Source: Silvimonas terrae (GTDB lineage Bacteria > Pseudomonadota > Gammaproteobacteria > Burkholderiales > Chitinibacteraceae). Taken from it: 64,000 nucleotides of DNA. Below are positions 7,930-58,840 of the stretch, piece after piece. The DNA lies in NCBI RefSeq assembly GCF_014202765.1, contig NZ_JACHHN010000007.1, forward strand, positions 90,194 through 154,193, in the 5' to 3' direction. Within the stretch, counting starts at the first letter, position 1. The number at the start of each line of letters is the position of its first letter. The notes beneath the pieces are model-generated. The model made no database searches. It had not been told where the DNA came from and saw only the letters and a program-made list of their open reading frames with translations. The position numbers and the translations under genes are program-made.

Positions 7930-10128
7930 ATGGTCGCCGTTACCCGCCCGCTTGCCCAGTCCATTGCTGAAGCCGCCGATCCGGCGCGCTGGCTGTCTGC
8001 GCTCTCCAGCCGCTATCCGGCTGAGCATGTCCGCCGCCTGGAACAGGCGCTGGACTGGTCTGCCTCGCTCTATCAAGGCAAGACTCACCCCGACACCAAC
8101 GAGCCGCTGTTTCCGCACGCGGTCGCGGCGGCCTCAATTGTGGCTGACCTGCACCTGGATGCCGACGCGGTCATTGCAACCCTGTTGTTTGCCGTGCCCG
8201 ACAGTCTGGCCGATGCCACCGCCGCCATCGAAACCCATTTTGGCAAAGCCGTCGCCACGCTGGTCGAAGGCGTCTGGCGCGTTCGCAAAATCCGCTCTTT
8301 GGCCCAGGGACGTACACGGGGCGCAGACCATGCCGAGCAGATAGAAGCCCTGCGCAAGATGTTGCTGGCCATGGTTGAAGACATGCGCGTGGTGCTGATC
8401 AATCTGGCCTGGCGCACGCAAACCATGCACACGCTGGGGGGCATGCCCGACGAAGACCGTCGCCGCATCGCGCGGGAGACGCTGGATATCTACGCCCCGC
8501 TGGCCAACCGGCTGGGCGTCTGGCAGATCAAGTGGGAGCTGGAAGACCTGGGTTTCCGCTATATGGAGCCGGAAACCTACAAAAAGATTGCCAAGCTGCT
8601 GGACGAGCGCCGCGTTGACCGCGAGAGTTTCATCAACGACGTGCTCGCCACCTTGCGCACGGAACTGGCCGCCGCCGGCGTAACCCATGTCGATCTGATG
8701 GGCCGGCCCAAGCACATTTTCAGCATCTGGAAAAAGATGCAGAAAAAGAAGCTGGATTTCTCTGAACTCTACGACATCCGCGCCGTGCGCGTGCTGGTCG
8801 ATGACGTCAAAGATTGCTACACCGTGCTGGGGATCATCCACAATCTGTGGCAGCCCATTCCCGGCGAGTTTGACGACTACATTGCCAACCCCAAGGGCAA
8901 CTTCTACCGCAGTTTGCACACGGCCGTCATCGGCCCCAGCGATAAGGCGGTAGAGGTCCAGATCCGCACCTTTGACATGCACGAACACGCCGAATTTGGC
9001 GTGGCCGCGCACTGGCGCTACAAGGAAGGCGGCAAGGGCGACAGCAAGTATGAAGAGAAAATCGCCTGGCTGCGCCAGTTGCTGGACTGGCGCGAAGACA
9101 TGGCCCAGGAAGCGCATCTGGCCGACGCCTTCAAGGCTGAACTGTTTGATGACACCATTTACGTCTTGACCCCGGCCGGCCGCGTGATCGCCTTGCCCAA
9201 GGGCTCTACGCCGGTGGATTTTGCCTATCACTTGCACAGTGATCTGGGCCACCGCTGCCGCGGCGCCAAGGTCAATGGGCAGATCGTGCCGCTGAACACC
9301 GCGCTGGAAAACGGCCAGCGCGTGGAAATCCTCGCGGCCAAAGAAGGCGGCCCCAGCCTGGACTGGCTGCATCAGGGTTATGTCAAAAGCCACCGCGCAG
9401 CGCAGAAAATCCGCTATTGGGTCCGCCAGCAAAACCTGGATGTGGTGGTGGCAGAAGGCAAATCCTTGTACGACAAGGAAGCCGCCCGCGCTGGTGCTAC
9501 CCAGGCCAATCAGGATGAAGTCGCCCAGCGTCTCGGTTACAAAACGGTCAACGAGTTGTATGTGGCGCTGGGGCATGACGATGTGTCGCTGCGGCAACTG
9601 GCCGATGCTTTTGTCACCAGCCCGCCGCCTGTGGAAGAACACATTGCGCCGGAGGACGTGGTCAAGCGCGCCCGCGCTGACCAGCATGGCGAAGGCATTC
9701 TGATTGAGGGCGTGGATCAGTTGATGACCATGCTGGCCAAGTGCTGCAAGCCAGTGCCGCCGGATTCGGTAGTCGGCTTTGTGACCAAAGGCCGTGGTAT
9801 CTCCATCCACCGCTCGGACTGCATTACGCTCAAGCGGCTGGCGGCGGCATCACCCGAGCGCCTGATCAAGGCCGATTGGGGCAAGCAGACTGGCAATGTC
9901 TTTGCCACCGACATCCTGGTGGAGGCCCATGACCGCCCCAGCCTGTTGCGCGACCTCTCGGACGTGATGTCGCGGGAGAAAATCAACGTCACTGGCGTCA
10001 ATACGCTCTCTAAAAACACCTTGGCCCGCATGCGCTTCACGGTGGAAATCCGCGGCGTTGCCGACCTGCCGCGTATTTTTGTGCGGCTATCGGACGTGCC
10101 CGGTGTACTGAAGGTGGAACGTGTCTAA
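7930..10128 (+). CDS. relA: (p)ppGpp synthetase RelA (hydrolase-dead HD domain)
   Basis: Ribosome-associated GTP pyrophosphokinase of 732 residues, the stringent-response synthase activated by amino-acid starvation. The N-terminal HD domain is degenerate: the HDxxED motif is replaced by FAVPDS (residues 87-92), so hydrolysis is not expected. The synthetase domain carries the RelA-type EXDD motif (E313-FDD) and YRSLHT. It is followed by a TGS domain (about 398-460) and a C-terminal ACT domain (about 655-732). These marks separate it from bifunctional SpoT, which must be elsewhere. The downstream gene overlaps its end by 8 bp. Confidence 0.95.
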   Translation: MVAVTRPLAQSIAEAADPARWLSALSSRYPAEHVRRLEQALDWSASLYQGKTHPDTNEPLFPHAVAAASIVADLHLDADAVIATLLFAVPDSLADATAAIETHFGKAVATLVEGVWRVRKIRSLAQGRTRGADHAEQIEALRKMLLAMVEDMRVVLINLAWRTQTMHTLGGMPDEDRRRIARETLDIYAPLANRLGVWQIKWELEDLGFRYMEPETYKKIAKLLDERRVDRESFINDVLATLRTELAAAGVTHVDLMGRPKHIFSIWKKMQKKKLDFSELYDIRAVRVLVDDVKDCYTVLGIIHNLWQPIPGEFDDYIANPKGNFYRSLHTAVIGPSDKAVEVQIRTFDMHEHAEFGVAAHWRYKEGGKGDSKYEEKIAWLRQLLDWREDMAQEAHLADAFKAELFDDTIYVLTPAGRVIALPKGSTPVDFAYHLHSDLGHRCRGAKVNGQIVPLNTALENGQRVEILAAKEGGPSLDWLHQGYVKSHRAAQKIRYWVRQQNLDVVVAEGKSLYDKEAARAGATQANQDEVAQRLGYKTVNELYVALGHDDVSLRQLADAFVTSPPPVEEHIAPEDVVKRARADQHGEGILIEGVDQLMTMLAKCCKPVPPDSVVGFVTKGRGISIHRSDCITLKRLAAASPERLIKADWGKQTGNVFATDILVEAHDRPSLLRDLSDVMSREKINVTGVNTLSKNTLARMRFTVEIRGVADLPRIFVRLSDVPGVLKVERV

Positions 10129-52910: not shown

Positions 52911-54296
52911 TTATGACGCCTTGCAGCCCAACCCCTCAAACGATGCCTTGCTGCCATAGGTGACCGAAGGCAAATAGGGTCCGATCACGGATTGCTCCTG
53001 GCCTGGCACCAGCACGTTTTGTAGCGCGTTGGCGAAGGATGGCTCTGGCAGCATGTTCCGCATGATCAAGAGTCCATCGTTGGGATGGCCATTGCCGTCA
53101 CCCACATCCGACCACTGGACCCAGCCATAACCGCACGCGGTGGTGGCATTGGCCGGTCGGTCTGCGCTGCGACTGATAGCGATGACGTAATTGCCATTGG
53201 CATCTACCGGCACCTGCTCGTCATACATGCAGTCGGTCACCTTCTGCGTGTAAAACTCGTTCATGCAGATGGACCAGTATCGCAACTGCCCGGCCACGTG
53301 CGTCAGGCTGTTGTGGAAGGTGGCCGGCACTTGCGGCAACTTGCCGCGCAAGATGGCTACCGTACCGTAATCGCGGCTGATCATGCTCTCCACATAGGCG
53401 TTATCCGGATTGCCATACCAGTTTTGTTGATACGCCGGGGTGCCACTACACAGGTAATAAAACAGGCATTGCAGGTTCCAGGTGCGGTTGAACGGGAAAT
53501 GCCAGTCACCCGGGTTCTGGGCCGGAAAGCTGTCGGGCACGTTGGCCTGATCCCGCAAACTGGCGTACGTGGCCTGCGGCAGAAAATTGGGTGTGCTCAG
53601 CGCGCTGGCGGGGTTGAGCTCTGCACAGGCGGCGTCACCGCTGAGCGTGCTGCCATCTGCATTCAAGACCGATACGTCCGGCAAACCCACCGCCCCCGTG
53701 TCATCCGCCCCTTGATCGGGTACGTAGACGCGGTACCAGAAGGTCACGGTCGGACCTGGCATGCCGGTGTAGAGCGTATTCGCGGCCGGTGTGGCAGGCG
53801 TGCTGCCAGCCACGATCTCTACCTGATAGTTGCGGGCATCGGCATAACGCGGGTTACCGGCAATAAACGGGTTGGTCGCGCCCGTAGCCGGCTGGATATC
53901 TTCATCATGCAGTACGTTCACCGGCTGCGCGTTGGTGTCGTAGCTCACGTAGGAGATATACCGTGAGTACGGAAACTGGCCGTTGACGAACAGATGCGCC
54001 CCAGCCGGGATGGTCACCGTTGCCGACCAGTAAGCGGCGCCGCTATCCGGATAGGCAAAGTTACCGTTGGGGTTATCCCGGGAGAGCGGCCCCTTCCACA
54101 AGCAGGTTTGTGCAGCATGTTGCACGCTGAACGAAGCCGGCAGAGGATTGGTCGGCGCCGGTGTGGGGGTGGCTGGCGTGGGTGCAGCAATGCTACTGGA
54201 GCCATCACTGCCGCAAGCGGACAGCAAGAGCGCGGAGATTGCACAGCTCAGGCCGATGGCCAGCGCACGGCGAGGTTTGGAAATGACAGCAGACAC
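52911..54296 (-). CDS. lipoprotein of unknown function
   Basis: 461 residues from a GTG with a near-perfect AAGGAGGAG ribosome-binding site, which overrules an ATG 75 bp upstream. Signal peptide with lipobox LLLSAC (Cys 28) and a TPTPAPTNP linker. The mature part is rich in Tyr, Asn and Pro, with several cysteines (QTCLWKGPLSRDNPNGNFAY, QCLFYYLC, WSICMNEFYTQKVTDCMYDE). I recognise no named family. It follows the TetR-type gene by 93 bp on the same strand, so that regulator may control it. Confidence 0.8.
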   Translation of the reverse strand: MSAVISKPRRALAIGLSCAISALLLSACGSDGSSSIAAPTPATPTPAPTNPLPASFSVQHAAQTCLWKGPLSRDNPNGNFAYPDSGAAYWSATVTIPAGAHLFVNGQFPYSRYISYVSYDTNAQPVNVLHDEDIQPATGATNPFIAGNPRYADARNYQVEIVAGSTPATPAANTLYTGMPGPTVTFWYRVYVPDQGADDTGAVGLPDVSVLNADGSTLSGDAACAELNPASALSTPNFLPQATYASLRDQANVPDSFPAQNPGDWHFPFNRTWNLQCLFYYLCSGTPAYQQNWYGNPDNAYVESMISRDYGTVAILRGKLPQVPATFHNSLTHVAGQLRYWSICMNEFYTQKVTDCMYDEQVPVDANGNYVIAISRSADRPANATTACGYGWVQWSDVGDGNGHPNDGLLIMRNMLPEPSFANALQNVLVPGQEQSVIGPYLPSVTYGSKASFEGLGCKAS

Positions 54297-54389
54297 GGAC
54301 TCCTCCTTGGATTTTGGTCGTGTATTACCGGTACTGGTTGTCGTTTTTTGCAGAGTCAAAAGCCGGTGCAACCGGCGCGATCAGCGCGA

Positions 54390-54980
54390 TCAGGGCAACG
54401 GGCGGCTGGAAAAACTGATGCCGCCGACGATGTAATCGCGCAGATATCGGTCCAGCCGGTCCCGGCTGGTGGTCTCAAGAGGCCACCAGCGCTCCAGACC
54501 GGCGTCGGGAATGACGTTCAGAACGGTATTGAAGGCATAGAGAATCTTGACCCCGGCGGCTTCCTGATCAAGCGCAGGGAGTGCCTGCCGGGCACCTGCT
54601 GAAAGCTGGAGGGAGACGGGCCCGAGGCCACGCGCCAGCAGTTCACGTCCGCGCTGGCCGCAATCGCCGGCCATCCGCGCCATCAGTTGCACGCGACCAC
54701 GGCCTTGCGGCGTGACCACCATGCGCACAATCGGGCGGATCATGGCTTCGGCGATATCCATCAGCGTGAGGGTGGCCCGTTGCGCGGCCAACATGGTTTC
54801 AATGTCATGGCTGTACGCGCTGGTGGCTTCAGCCACGGCGGCCTCGACCAGACCCCAGACATTGCCGAAGTGGTAATTCACCGCCGACTGATTCGCCACC
54901 CCAGCGAGCTTGTTGATGTTGCGCACGGAGGTTCCGTCCAGACCGCGCTCAGCCACGAGTTCGGTAATCGCCTCGATCAT
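54390..54980 (-). CDS. TetR-family transcriptional regulator, possibly 5'-truncated
   Basis: 196 residues. The N-terminal HTH is clear (MIEAITELVAERGLDGTSVR, LAGVANQSAVNYHFGN). The C-terminal ligand domain is of the type seen in TetR regulators with long helices and no clear ligand. The first residue aligns with the IL-AA part of helix 1, so 5-10 residues usually found before it are missing. A stop codon lies directly before the ATG and no ribosome-binding site is present. A terminator hairpin ends 11 bp upstream, leaving no room for a promoter. Confidence 0.8.
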   Translation of the reverse strand: MIEAITELVAERGLDGTSVRNINKLAGVANQSAVNYHFGNVWGLVEAAVAEATSAYSHDIETMLAAQRATLTLMDIAEAMIRPIVRMVVTPQGRGRVQLMARMAGDCGQRGRELLARGLGPVSLQLSAGARQALPALDQEAAGVKILYAFNTVLNVIPDAGLERWWPLETTSRDRLDRYLRDYIVGGISFSSRPLP

Positions 54981-54991
54981 CTAAAACAGAC

Positions 54992-55020
54992 AAGGCCCGC
55001 ACATTGCGGGCCTTTGCTTT
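54992..55020. terminator. terminator of the DUF262 cassette
   Basis: AAGGCCCGC-ACATT-GCGGGCCTT. On the minus strand it follows the cassette (ends 55130) and runs into a T-rich tail directly before the TetR-type start. Confidence 0.8.
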
Positions 55021-55129
55021 ATCTGGGATCGCCTGATCCGTTCTCTACAGTCTGAACCACGCCTTGAATGGCAATCGGGGTGGCGCTTCCCTTTCCTCAA
55101 AGAAAACCCAGACCGTCGAACTGTTACCG

Positions 55130-56131
55130 TTAAGGCAAAGGAAGATGTCGATGGAATATAGCAATGATCACTTTTTCACCAGACTCTGGAACCGGTGGAT
55201 GAAAGTGCAGTCGATTCTGATGTGGCTTTAATTTGCCATGCCATTCGCAGTAAAGGGTTCTGCCCCCGAGAACTATTTCGCGGGCCTCCCGGCATCTGGT
55301 GTCATCATGCACATTCGGCTTTTCGGGTGCGACTTCCAGTGCGAGCCCCATAAACCGTCTTTCGATGATTTGATTTGAGGGGCGTGCCTTTGGGTCTGGG
55401 CCATCAGCTTCTCCTCTACTTAGAGCTGGGGGCGGACAGGTAAATGCCCAGTAACCTTGATCGTCGAGAACCCTCAGGTACTTCTGCACAGTTTTACGTT
55501 CTGCGTCGTACCCGCCTACAAGTTCGTTTAGCCCACGCCATACATTTGCTTGAAAAAACAAGTCTGGAAAGGCATGAGGTGCCAAGCGCTCCAAGGCTTC
55601 CTGGCTATCGCCTTCCAATTCGATGGCGTCACGCCAAAATGCCCGGTGGCTGTTTTCGTCCACAACCCAATGAACCACCGCATGGCCATAAACAGAGTCC
55701 GTATCATGCACACCAGATCGCCGAAGCCCAATGCAAGCAACGGGACGGCCATTTCTGACATGATGGTGGGCCCATGCCCAATCTGCATTTTCTGCTTGTT
55801 GGGCTTGTCCATCCACACCAATGAGTAGTGCGTCGGCCATCCCGTGGGGCCAATCTGGTTCGTCCAGGTACTTGGAAGCACGCCCCAACCATGCCGCCAA
55901 TTCTTGCCGGATTTCAGGGGGCACCGAAATCGGAGAATCTGGTGCAACAAGGCTCCAAAGATCAAGGTCTCCCAACATAGAGCGAGTCTGTAAGTCATCG
56001 CCAATCCAGATTGTTTCTTTCCGATTCTTGGCAATTTCTACCCGTTCAAGCAGCAAGTCTATGGCAAAGATAATGTCTTCAGATGACCAGCCATTGAAAT
56101 TCCACTCGCTACCATCAATGACGAAGGACAT
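55130..56131 (-). CDS. unrecognised protein, third gene of the DUF262-AAA cassette
   Basis: 333 residues, no signal peptide or membrane helix. I recognise no family. The N-terminal third is helical and acidic (WSSEDIIFAIDLLLERVEIA). The C-terminus carries a dense polar motif at residues 280-311: Cys280, Cys295-Glu-Trp-His298, Lys300, His304, Asn306-Arg307, His309, His311, ending IIAIFHRHLPLP. This pattern could be a catalytic site (nuclease-like), which is inference. The ATG follows the ATPase stop with no gap, so it is surely cotranslated. Composition is AT-richer than the flanks. Confidence 0.8.
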   Translation of the reverse strand: MSFVIDGSEWNFNGWSSEDIIFAIDLLLERVEIAKNRKETIWIGDDLQTRSMLGDLDLWSLVAPDSPISVPPEIRQELAAWLGRASKYLDEPDWPHGMADALLIGVDGQAQQAENADWAWAHHHVRNGRPVACIGLRRSGVHDTDSVYGHAVVHWVVDENSHRAFWRDAIELEGDSQEALERLAPHAFPDLFFQANVWRGLNELVGGYDAERKTVQKYLRVLDDQGYWAFTCPPPALSRGEADGPDPKARPSNQIIERRFMGLALEVAPEKPNVHDDTRCREAREIVLGGRTLYCEWHGKLKPHQNRLHFHPPVPESGEKVIIAIFHRHLPLP

Positions 56132-57238
56132 TTAATTTCTTTTCCGGCGTATCTGCCCAAGCGAGGCAATATCGATCTGGTACTGATCGAAAAATCCCTG
56201 CGGCCAGTGTGAAATACTTCCATCGGACAGAAACGACAGTTCATAAGTCGTTGGCAAATTATCCGCATCTGGACCAAAAAAATGCGTAATTGCATTGTCA
56301 TGCGTCAGATAATGATGTTCTCCAATCGCACGCCTGACACCATTTAAAACATGATCGGAATGTGTCTCGAGAATGACCTGGATGCCACAACCGGCAAGCC
56401 AAGCGAGAAATGCCCCCATACGTGACTGGCCCGCTGGGTGCAGGTGAGCTTCAGGATTTTCGACAATCAGGAGACCGTTATCCTGGGCCGTAAGACCAGC
56501 CAGAATAATCGGCAGAGCATAAGAAATACCAAACCCCATATTTGGAGCATGAACCCATGCTTCACCGGAGGTTCGAAAGCGCATCGAGTTTACGGTGGTA
56601 CCTGGATATCGAATAGCATCGATCTCAATCGGCTTGGCAATTTCTCCGATCCATTTCTCCACTTCATACTTCAACAGCGAAGCGCCCCCCATTTCTGCAT
56701 CCGGGTGCTGCCTTGCGACATTTTGCAGAGGGCTATTACCCATTGTTGCGACCATTTGGGCACAATATTCACCATGGACCCCAATTTCCAGCGTGTCGTC
56801 TGGGCAGGGAGATGCCCCTAAAACGCTTCTCGGGCCAAGCCTTTCTGCACATAGATAAGTGAACGCACGAGGGCGCCCTGAGAACGACGAGGGTACAAAG
56901 TCTGGTTTATTTTCGATGGTCAAATACAAGGCTTCCTCAGACGAGGCTCCAAAATGCCAGCTACTGATGTCCTCTCCCTCGACCAGTTGCAACTTGATGG
57001 CATCATCAGAATCCCAATTACGCACACTTTCGGCGGTTCCTAATTGCAACCCAAAAGGTCCGTTCAGTTGCACTGTATTCCCAGTTCTACCACTGGAAGC
57101 CTCCCAGCACAGGAGTAGCGCGTGAATAAGAGATGTTTTCCCCGACCCGTTCAATCCAGTAAGGATGGTTAGAGGGGCCGCTCTGAACGTTTTGTCAGAG
57201 AAGCGTTTAAATCCCTCGATGCGTATCTCAGTAATCAC
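56132..57238 (-). CDS. AAA ATPase, RecF/OLD-like with DUF3696 C-terminus
   Basis: 368-residue ABC-type ATPase. MITEIRIEGFKRFSDKTF is followed by Walker A GLNGSGKTS (28-36). Later come a signature-like MGFGISYALPIILAG, Walker B LLIVENPEAHLHP (Asp replaced by Asn-Pro context as usual in this group, Glu kept) and the H-loop ETHSDHVLNGVRRAI. The C-terminus FLSDGSISHWPQGFFDQYQI is the DUF3696 pattern. Such ATPases occur in OLD, Septu- and Gabija-like defence proteins. The GTG start overlaps the DUF262 stop. It probably senses a trigger and controls its two partners. Confidence 0.88.
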   Translation of the reverse strand: MITEIRIEGFKRFSDKTFRAAPLTILTGLNGSGKTSLIHALLLCWEASSGRTGNTVQLNGPFGLQLGTAESVRNWDSDDAIKLQLVEGEDISSWHFGASSEEALYLTIENKPDFVPSSFSGRPRAFTYLCAERLGPRSVLGASPCPDDTLEIGVHGEYCAQMVATMGNSPLQNVARQHPDAEMGGASLLKYEVEKWIGEIAKPIEIDAIRYPGTTVNSMRFRTSGEAWVHAPNMGFGISYALPIILAGLTAQDNGLLIVENPEAHLHPAGQSRMGAFLAWLAGCGIQVILETHSDHVLNGVRRAIGEHHYLTHDNAITHFFGPDADNLPTTYELSFLSDGSISHWPQGFFDQYQIDIASLGQIRRKRN

Positions 57239-58434
57239 TTCATGACCTCTTGCAAAATTTCTTTCGTAGTCATGAGCCGTTTGTTTACAGCAACAGGGTC
57301 ACCAGTGCTAACGGAAACCACACGGCTATAGTCCTGATCATCAAACGCCGCCCGAAATGCCGCTACAATCTTCTCTTTCTTAGGCAACAGCTCGCTTAAC
57401 CCATAGTCCGCCAGTGCGATTGATTGAGCTTCGAAAACAGCACGGTTGATCGGGCCTCGCCGCGTTTGCTCCGTAGGCCAACGTCGAAAGGCTGCAGTAC
57501 CGAGTATTTGGTGCGCGTTTATCATTGCCCTCTCGAAGTCTTCTTTGAGGGCGAAGAGTTCATCATCCGGAATGGCTGGACTGCCGTCCGAGCGACCATC
57601 AATCCGGCGGATGAATTCAACCAAGAATGCGTCAAGGCTCGAGTAACTACGATAGTCCGCATCTGTATAGCGGCGGAAAGCGCAAAATCTTAGTACCAGT
57701 TCACGATTGGTCATCCGTCCACCATCGCGAACCCGACCCTCCTCCGCATCGCGGTCTTTACGCCAGTATTGCCACTCGGTAGCTTCGTCAAACGAAGGAA
57801 ATTCAGATAGTTCTTTGATGAATTTTCGTGACTTAGGCTTGCTCATTGCGTGGCGAATCTCTTGAGCCGAAAGCGGACTACCTAATGTATTGACACGACC
57901 AAAGATGTCGTACTTCACTTCTGCCGGGGTCTGCGGTTCAATTACGTGCACAACAATTTGCGTACTTCGAAAGCGCCGACTTGCCGCAACATCCAGTTCA
58001 GCATAAGTCAGGCCGTCCAAGCTCTGTAGATACTCGAGATCAGCCCCATCAAGCTGATGACGATTGTTCATAAACAATGAGACGGTCGAGAGACGCTGCA
58101 CCCCATCAACAACTTGATAAGTGCCGTCCACGTCTTGATTGAAATAAAACGCAGGGAGGGGAATACCGAGAAGGATGGACTCAACCAACCTGGTACGCTG
58201 ACGCTTTTTCCACACAAACTCACGCTGAAAATCTGGCGACAGCTCGATTTCCTTCTCTGTGATCTGGTCAACGATATCTCGAAGTGAAAGATGTTTGGTG
58301 GTTATGCGAATCTTGCTCGGATCCCAAGGCTTGGTCCCAGACTCACCATTGCCGGTGTCTTCATCATCCACAGCATCAATTGGCAGGGCTACATCGTCAT
58401 CGTATTGCAGTGAAGGATCGATCTCGTTTGACAT
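57235..58434 (-). CDS. DUF262 (GmrSD/ParB-like) protein
   Basis: 399 residues. An acidic N-terminal tail (1-40) precedes the DUF262 domain: HLSLRDIVDQITEKEIELSP, DFQREFVWKKRQRTRLVESI, PLPAFYFNQ and the nucleotide/active-site motif DGVQRLST (110-117), where most members have DGQQRL. Helical C-terminal part. DUF262 is found in the GmrSD type IV restriction enzyme and other phage-defence nucleases. First gene of a three-gene minus-strand operon; AAGG lies before the ATG. No HNH (DUF1524) domain follows within the protein, so any cutting may depend on the partners. Confidence 0.9.
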   Translation of the reverse strand: MSNEIDPSLQYDDDVALPIDAVDDEDTGNGESGTKPWDPSKIRITTKHLSLRDIVDQITEKEIELSPDFQREFVWKKRQRTRLVESILLGIPLPAFYFNQDVDGTYQVVDGVQRLSTVSLFMNNRHQLDGADLEYLQSLDGLTYAELDVAASRRFRSTQIVVHVIEPQTPAEVKYDIFGRVNTLGSPLSAQEIRHAMSKPKSRKFIKELSEFPSFDEATEWQYWRKDRDAEEGRVRDGGRMTNRELVLRFCAFRRYTDADYRSYSSLDAFLVEFIRRIDGRSDGSPAIPDDELFALKEDFERAMINAHQILGTAAFRRWPTEQTRRGPINRAVFEAQSIALADYGLSELLPKKEKIVAAFRAAFDDQDYSRVVSVSTGDPVAVNKRLMTTKEILQEVMK

Positions 58435-58720
58435 CTAAGACGGCCTTAAAAATTATTGTCTTGGAATAGCTTAGCAGCTTACCTACCTCTACGGCAGACC
58501 TCCGGTCTCGAACACTGTCGCGGCTGTTTCCGTTCAACTAGACCGTCCCGACGTGTCATTCTCGCTCCGATCTGGAATTACCTCGCCAATTGATCCGCCC
58601 ATCATGCTTCTAACAAGCGAGAGCCTGTCTCAGAAAAAAACCGGGCAATCGGAAAAACATAACCGATTCCGTTTGTGGGGGCTGGTGTTGGGGTTGGCAG
58701 TATCGGCAAGCCAGAAATGC
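58435..58720. other. gap between cassette and tRNA-Pro
   Basis: Non-coding as far as I can see. The part next to 58434 is AT-rich and should hold the cassette promoter. I searched for a repeat of the tRNA 3' end near 55000 and found none. Confidence 0.5.
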
Positions 58721-58763: not shown

Positions 58764-58840
58764 TGGTCGGAATGGCGGGATTCGAACTCGCGACCCCTTG
58801 CACCCCATGCAAGTGCGCTACCAGGCTGCGCTACATTCCG
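58764..58840 (-). tRNA. tRNA-Pro (anticodon GGG)
   Basis: Minus-strand cloverleaf. It starts CGGAATGTAGCGCAGCCTGG and the acceptor CGGAATG pairs with CATTCCG. The anticodon arm CTTGC-ATGGGGT-GCAAG gives GGG. T-arm GTTCGAATC, encoded CCA at 58764-58766. 77 nt. Confidence 0.96.

What the first reader, a model, noticed from the sequence alone, without database searches (positions are those of the whole stretch)
55130..58434. Three-gene DUF262 / DUF3696-ATPase / unknown cassette beside tRNA-Pro: candidate defence system
Seen: three minus-strand genes with 0-4 bp junctions (DUF262 protein, RecF/OLD-like AAA with DUF3696 C-terminus, unrecognised 333-aa protein). They are bounded by a terminator (54992-55020) and tRNA-Pro(GGG), with visibly more A/T than the flanks (one sampled 60-bp line, 57841-57900, is 52% GC). 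Known: DUF262 occurs in GmrSD-type restriction and RecF/OLD-like ATPases recur in anti-phage systems. Inference: a self-contained defence module in which the ATPase senses and DUF262 and/or the third protein act. I cannot match the full trio to a named system.
Basis: partly seen in the sequence, partly recalled or inferred. Interest (0 to 1): 0.78.

Follow-up and report, generated by a model that had tools for sequence, protein, structure and literature searches.

The report
Known Menshen anti-phage operon, horizontally acquired
The three genes beside the proline tRNA are a member of Menshen, an already named bacterial anti-phage defence system, which this strain appears to have acquired from elsewhere; the useful extra is a structure-based hint that its least understood protein carries a toxin-like RNA-cutting domain.

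Summary
Three minus-strand genes (57235-58434, 56132-57238, 55130-56131), joined by a 4-bp overlap and a 0-bp junction, lie between a terminator and tRNA-Pro(GGG); G+C is 50.4% against 59.1% for the window. They match the PADLOC profiles NsnA, NsnB and NsnC over nearly their whole length. The order A-B-C is kept in 14 of 15 related loci; the 15th is cut by its contig end. The trio is absent beside this tRNA in 3 of 3 congeners. NsnC, unknown to Pfam, gives a confident model (pLDDT 90). Its C-terminal part resembles RelE/YoeB toxins (Z 6.6) and its N-terminal part VapC/PIN (Z 6.2), but sequence profiles show no kinship. H298, K300 and R307, invariant in 24 of 24 NsnC, lie in the RelE-like part. 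Inferred mechanism: NsnA senses, NsnB gates, NsnC cuts RNA. The 2025 paper on Menshen domains could not be read, so whether the NsnC reading is new stays open.

The parts
57235..58434 (-). nsnA: DUF262 (GmrSD_N, ParB/sulfiredoxin-like fold) protein, 399 aa, keeps DG.QR, no DUF1524 hit
   Evidence: PF03235 E 5.4e-26; PADLOC NsnA E 4.8e-112; D110 G111 Q113 R114 invariant in 12 of 12; model best match BrxU Z 9.3
56132..57238 (-). nsnB: RecF/OLD-like ABC-type ATPase ending in DUF3696, 368 aa, no TOPRIM hit
   Evidence: AAA_15, AAA_21, DUF3696; PADLOC NsnB E 3.6e-95; Walker A and PEAHLHP / ETHSDH kept in 12 of 12
55130..56131 (-). nsnC: 333 aa, proposed effector
   Evidence: PADLOC NsnC (PDLC03914) E 1.2e-98, profile positions 1-314 of 314; no Pfam or NCBIfam match
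55652..56131 (-). nsnC residues 1-160: PIN/VapC-like fold, probably without a working acidic site
   Evidence: VIA Z 6.2, rmsd 4.4, 118 aligned to 3tnd_A; residue 6 is D in 15 and N in 8 of 24, residue 117 acidic in 9 of 24
55133..55576 (-). nsnC residues 186-333: RelE/YoeB-like fold with invariant H298, K300, R307
   Evidence: VIA Z 6.6, rmsd 3.6, 87 aligned to 7v6w_E, a chain of 89 residues; conservation; not supported by profile comparison
54992..55014 (-). likely operon terminator (10-pair stem, T-rich tail; also reads on the + strand)
54980..58700 (.). approximate extent of the inserted DNA; right edge uncertain within about 58678-58715
   Evidence: homology to congeners ends at 54979 on one side (G001, G002) and at 58678, 58710, 58715 on the other
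58764..58840 (-). tRNA-Pro(GGG), conserved flank of the site, not duplicated

Best explanation
This is a horizontally acquired Menshen (NsnABC) anti-phage operon read from nsnA to nsnC. Shown here: gene order, profile matches, conservation of the operon, absence at this site in congeners, foreign composition. Inferred: NsnA, a DUF262 protein that keeps the nucleotide-binding motif but has no nuclease domain of its own, detects an infection cue. NsnB, an ATPase related to AriA and PtuA, transmits it and restrains NsnC in the resting cell. NsnC is then activated and its RelE/YoeB-like C-terminal domain cuts RNA, most likely mRNA on ribosomes, which stops translation and aborts phage growth. The PIN-like N-terminal part of NsnC, its fastest-changing part, would serve docking or recognition and not cutting.
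For: Near-full-length PADLOC matches to NsnA, NsnB, NsnC. Order A-B-C in 14 of 15 related loci, proteobacteria and actinobacteria. Absent beside the tRNA in 3 of 3 congeners, each with other DNA there. Lowest G+C of the window. NsnA model closest to BrxU, SspE and ParB. NsnB profile matches solved OLD-family, PtuA and AriA chains in part. NsnC model confident; all 20 entries at Z 5 or more fall in two sets, 13 RelE/YoeB-type on residues 186-333 and 7 VapC/PIN-type on residues 1-159 (three titles assigned from recall). Invariant H298, K300, R307 and near-invariant E270, W297, H309 in 24 NsnC proteins, all in the RelE-like part. A residue pattern shared with YoeB is in 15 of 24 NsnC, 12 of 12 YoeB, 1 of 497 other ORFs (written after seeing both families, so only suggestive).
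Against: NsnC-YoeB and NsnC-PIN profile comparisons give no signal (probabilities below 1%). Foldseek finds nothing for NsnC at E 0.001 in the PDB or in BFVD, and Z below 8 may be a common arrangement (note). The shared pattern is missing in 9 of 24 NsnC, and H329 is K in 4 of 24. No residue-level superposition was possible. No activity, sensing or gating was tested. The 2023 review calls the Menshen partner of DUF262 a predicted OLD nuclease (PMC10952713, section 6), a different assignment of the effector.
Confidence: 0.6

Rival explanations
1. Menshen in which NsnB is the nuclease (OLD-like) and NsnA regulates it by NTP hydrolysis, while NsnC is a specificity or sensor subunit.
For: A review describes the DUF262 partner as a predicted OLD nuclease (PMC10952713, section 6). 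The NsnB profile's best solved match is an OLD-family protein. NsnC is the least conserved protein in 104 of 105 pairs, as a recognition subunit could be.
Against: The window's NsnB has no TOPRIM hit among 13 Pfam families, and only about 70 residues follow its ETHSDH motif. The most conserved polar residues of NsnC cluster in one domain, which suits a catalytic part.
Confidence: 0.2
2. Menshen in which NsnA acts on DNA as a GmrSD-like restriction component and NsnC is an accessory RNA- or ribosome-binding protein.
For: DUF262 keeps DG.QR; the NsnA model resembles BrxU, a GmrSD-family enzyme (Z 9.3 at rmsd 14.6 over 274 residues).
Against: No DUF1524/HNH hit. NsnC is always next to NsnB in the loci read.
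Confidence: 0.1
3. A housekeeping unit of this lineage that merely resembles defence genes.
For: It lies alone among ordinary genes (pheT, ihfA and merR-like on one side, sugar genes on the other; names from inspection).
Against: Absent from this site in 3 of 3 congeners. In the 60 other related genomes the NsnB matches are partial, at 23-43% identity. Foreign composition.
Confidence: 0.02

Closest known systems
Menshen (NsnA-NsnB-NsnC)
   Same: All three genes, their order, near-full-length profile matches
   Different: Nothing that takes it outside; this NsnC subtype is rare (matches in 7 of 398 genomes of the phylum, the own genome included)
GmrSD / BrxU type IV restriction enzymes
   Same: DUF262 domain and fold of NsnA
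   Different: No DUF1524 nuclease domain found in the trio
PARIS (AriA-AriB)
   Same: NsnB profile matches AriA in part; AriB effector is a Toprim nuclease that cleaves tRNA (abstract start in listing), so an ATPase partnered by a translation-stopping RNase is a precedent (gating recalled)
   Different: No TOPRIM effector here; three genes with DUF262
RelE/YoeB-type mRNA interferases, including the CRISPR-linked effector Cami1
   Same: Predicted fold of NsnC 186-333 (YoeB Z 6.6; Cami1 8phj_X Z 3.9)
   Different: No detectable sequence kinship to YoeB; NsnC is a 333-aa two-domain protein in a three-gene operon

Membership tests
Menshen | Three genes nsnA, nsnB, nsnC adjacent in one operon | tested here: met
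Menshen | Each protein matches its Nsn profile over nearly its full length | tested here: met
   NsnA 24-398 of 399, NsnB 1-360 of 368, NsnC 1-332 of 333
Menshen | DUF262 protein without DUF1524 (PMC10952713, section 6) | tested here: met
   only GmrSD_N hit at E up to 1
Menshen | Anti-phage activity | not testable with these tools
   needs a plaque assay
GmrSD type IV restriction enzyme | DUF262 plus DUF1524 (HNH) domain | tested here: not met
   DUF262 present, no DUF1524 hit in any of the three proteins
OLD-family nuclease (NsnB) | ABC-type ATPase plus TOPRIM domain | tested here: not met
   ATPase domain hit, no TOPRIM among the 13 Pfam families at E up to 1
RelE/YoeB toxin (NsnC C-terminal part) | RelE-type fold | tested here: inconclusive
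   13 of the 20 entries at Z 5 or more, best Z 6.6 over 87 residues of an 89-residue chain; Foldseek E above 0.001
RelE/YoeB toxin (NsnC C-terminal part) | Sequence kinship to YoeB | tested here: not met
   hhalign with 12 YoeB proteins: probability 0.51%, 5 columns; no Pfam hit
RelE/YoeB toxin (NsnC C-terminal part) | Catalytic residues in equivalent places | tested here: inconclusive
   collinear pattern in 15 of 24 NsnC, post hoc; no superposition available
PIN/VapC (NsnC N-terminal part) | PIN fold | tested here: inconclusive
   7 of the 20 entries at Z 5 or more, best Z 6.2 over 118 residues
PIN/VapC (NsnC N-terminal part) | Sequence kinship to PIN (PF01850) | tested here: not met
   hhalign with 16 PIN proteins: probability 0.24%, 8 columns; no Pfam hit
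PIN/VapC (NsnC N-terminal part) | Conserved acidic active site | tested here: inconclusive
   residue 6 D in 15 of 24, 117 acidic in 9 of 24, 73 and 90 acidic in 20 and 22 of 24; equivalence to VapC residues not established
PARIS | AriB Toprim effector beside AriA | tested here: not met
   no Toprim hit in the trio; best PADLOC matches are Nsn, AriA only at 9.4e-23 for NsnB

The most novel reading that the evidence does not exclude
Menshen is an ATPase-gated RNase system: NsnC joins a degenerate PIN-like domain to a RelE/YoeB-like ribonuclease, so the system works as a phage-triggered toxin that shuts down translation and not as an OLD- or GmrSD-type DNA nuclease. The PIN-like half is the fast-changing interface that carries specificity.
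Probability: 0.4. Interest if true: 0.5.

Novelty: new member of a known kind. Interest (0 to 1): 0.3.

Why it matters
As a system it adds one more Menshen locus and shows that the DNA next to tRNA-Pro is a site of gene turnover in this genus (3 of 3 congeners differ there). If the NsnC reading is right, it gives a testable catalytic cluster (H298, K300, R307, with E270, H309, H329) for a system whose mechanism a 2026 review lists as unknown (PMC12926258, passage), and it places the effector in NsnC instead of NsnB.

Tried and rejected
Tried without result: viral contigs for NsnC relatives (none). A repeat of the tRNA 3' end elsewhere in the window (only the tRNA itself) and exact direct or inverted repeats of 7 bases or more between the two junction regions (none), so no integrase-type or transposon-type insertion is shown. 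Foldseek with NsnC on the PDB and on BFVD (nothing at E 0.001). Profile comparison of NsnC with YoeB and PIN (negative). NsnC profile against PDB sequences (one hit at E 0.21). Pfam scan of 13 NsnC proteins (four families, each in one member, best E 0.052, taken as chance).

Rows dropped: of 15 YoeB loci, one gave no frame and two gave a wrong frame, so 12 were used, one of them (L063) with its upstream extension trimmed off; of 20 PIN loci, 16 gave a frame and were used. L043 is left out of the pairwise table (no nsnA or nsnB on its contig). L039 was not read, being another match in the frame held in L035.

Considered and rejected: an unnamed trio, GmrSD membership (no DUF1524), OLD-nuclease membership of NsnB (no TOPRIM), a housekeeping operon.

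[quoted passage not shown] 2025, gkaf357; title seen only in two reference lists) are not held, so I cannot say whether the NsnC reading is already in print. Paper searches. The search for Menshen with RelE found one review; in its passages the two words stand in unconnected places.

Full report
What was claimed and what is there. The trio has the lowest G+C of the window (50.4% against 59.1%; the only 3 of 1214 sliding windows that are as low overlap it), and its genes have GC3 of 0.47-0.50 against 0.57-0.74 for nine other window genes that I chose.

Identity. PADLOC profiles assign the three proteins to NsnA (E 4.8e-112), NsnB (3.6e-95) and NsnC (1.2e-98), each over nearly its full length. 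Nsn is the gene prefix of Menshen (recalled; no call states it). [quoted passage not shown] So this is a known kind of system.

Conservation. A scan of one genome per species with an NsnC alignment matched 59 stretches, of which 12 encode a relative: Burkholderiales and other proteobacteria, Frankia, Nocardia, Cellulomonas and another actinobacterium. With three plasmid loci (Ensifer, Pantoea, Burkholderia glumae) this makes 15 loci. In 14 the genes stand in the order A-B-C; in L043 the contig begins at nsnC. A family search with this NsnC profile found matches in 7 of 398 genomes of the phylum, the own genome included. The eight loci that I read from the other six genomes show an NsnB-like frame directly upstream of nsnC, by inspection; these loci were too short to test for nsnA. 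This NsnC subtype is rare but stays with its partners.

Site. In 3 of 3 congeners the tRNA-Pro and its merR-like neighbour are present (91, 92 and 84% identity), but homology ends just past the tRNA at 58678, 58710 and 58715, and each congener has different DNA there: sugar-transport and glycosidase genes with an SseB-like protein (G001), a protein with a sub-threshold DUF2971 match (G002), an AlpA-like regulator and IS21-type genes (G003) (several names by inspection). In G002 the left flank is collinear with the window up to 52838. On the insert's left side homology to G001 and G002 ends at 54979, inside the start of a tetR-family gene that lies elsewhere in the three congeners (in G003 homology already ends at 54770). 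In a search of 61 related genomes with NsnB, 21 have a match, but outside the own genome all are partial stretches of other ATPases at 23-43% identity, some of them longer proteins matched at both ends. This reads as an acquisition at a variable site. No att duplication or terminal repeat was found, so the way of insertion is unknown.

NsnA. D110, G111, Q113 and R114 (VDGVQR or VDGLQR) are kept in 12 of 12 aligned sequences. The model (pLDDT 80.8; residues 1-35 under 50) is closest to BrxU (Z 9.3, at rmsd 14.6 over 274 residues, so with domains shifted), then SspE (Z 7.0) and ParB (Z 6.1). Pfam shows no nuclease domain.

NsnB. A RecF/OLD-type ATPase: Walker A (G28, N30, G33, K34), PEAHLHP and ETHSDH are invariant in 12 of 12, and DUF3696 ends the protein. 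No TOPRIM is hit. Solved sequence relatives, matched in part, include an OLD-family protein, PtuA and AriA.

NsnC. No Pfam or NCBIfam match. A model from 13 sequences is confident (pLDDT 90.1, pTM 0.86). Foldseek alone found nothing, but the VIA second look lists 20 entries at Z 5 or more that fall in two sets only: 13 RelE/YoeB/HigB/YafQ-type toxins on residues 186-333 and 7 VapC/PIN-type proteins on residues 1-159 (three titles, 8yxv, 1w8i and 2fe1, are not explicit and were assigned from recall). The tool warns that Z below 8 may be a common arrangement. Profile comparison does not support kinship with YoeB or PIN. Over 24 NsnC proteins H298, K300 and R307 are invariant, E270 and W297 are kept in 23, H309 in 22 and H329 in 20, all in the RelE-like part; the PIN-like part has no invariant acidic residue. 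A residue pattern drawn from YoeB and NsnC after seeing both is found in 15 of 24 NsnC, 12 of 12 YoeB, 1 of 497 other ORFs and 4 of 4800 shuffles; it is suggestive only. NsnC is the least conserved protein in 104 of 105 pairs of loci, and its first 185 residues diverge most (median identity 21% against 35% for the rest). In Burkholderia glumae NsnA and NsnB are 53% and 52% identical to the window's but NsnC only 26%.

Mechanism proposed. NsnA detects an infection cue, NsnB gates, NsnC cuts RNA. Only the anatomy is shown; sensing, gating and cleavage are inferred, with PARIS as precedent, where the effector AriB is a Toprim nuclease that cleaves tRNA (abstract start in listing; its control by the ATPase AriA is recalled). 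I put the identity as Menshen at about 0.97, the RelE-like fold of NsnC at about 0.65 and NsnC as RNase effector at about 0.5.

Novelty. A new member of a known kind. The NsnC reading may or may not already be in the 2025 Menshen paper, which I could not read.

Noticed in passing
window 54390-54980 (-): A tetR-family gene begins abruptly at the insert junction: relative to its congeners' orthologues it lacks about 15-17 N-terminal residues and the upstream region. It is the only copy in the own genome, and in the three congeners this gene and its lipoprotein neighbour lie at another place.
   Followed up: partly
window 52911-54371 (-): A lipoprotein-like protein of 486 aa with no Pfam match, kept next to the tetR-family gene in the three congeners.
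   Followed up: no
L024:17798-18637: In congener G002 the same tRNA-Pro site holds a protein with a sub-threshold DUF2971 match (18.5 bits, cut-off 22).
   Followed up: no
L031:4995-5936: Burkholderia glumae plasmid Menshen: NsnA and NsnB about half identical to the window's, NsnC only 26%, which looks like an exchanged or very fast-changing nsnC.
   Followed up: partly
L042:1370-2368 and 8397-10094: The closest relative (a gammaproteobacterial MAG) has its trio between a phage-type integrase and a C5 cytosine DNA methylase; a survey reports Menshen genes colocalising with restriction-modification outside defence islands (PMC10924106, passage).
   Followed up: no
L030:5001-6014: The Pantoea plasmid nsnC has a stop codon inside the stretch aligned to NsnC, and the annotated gene starts downstream of the expected start.
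   Followed up: no
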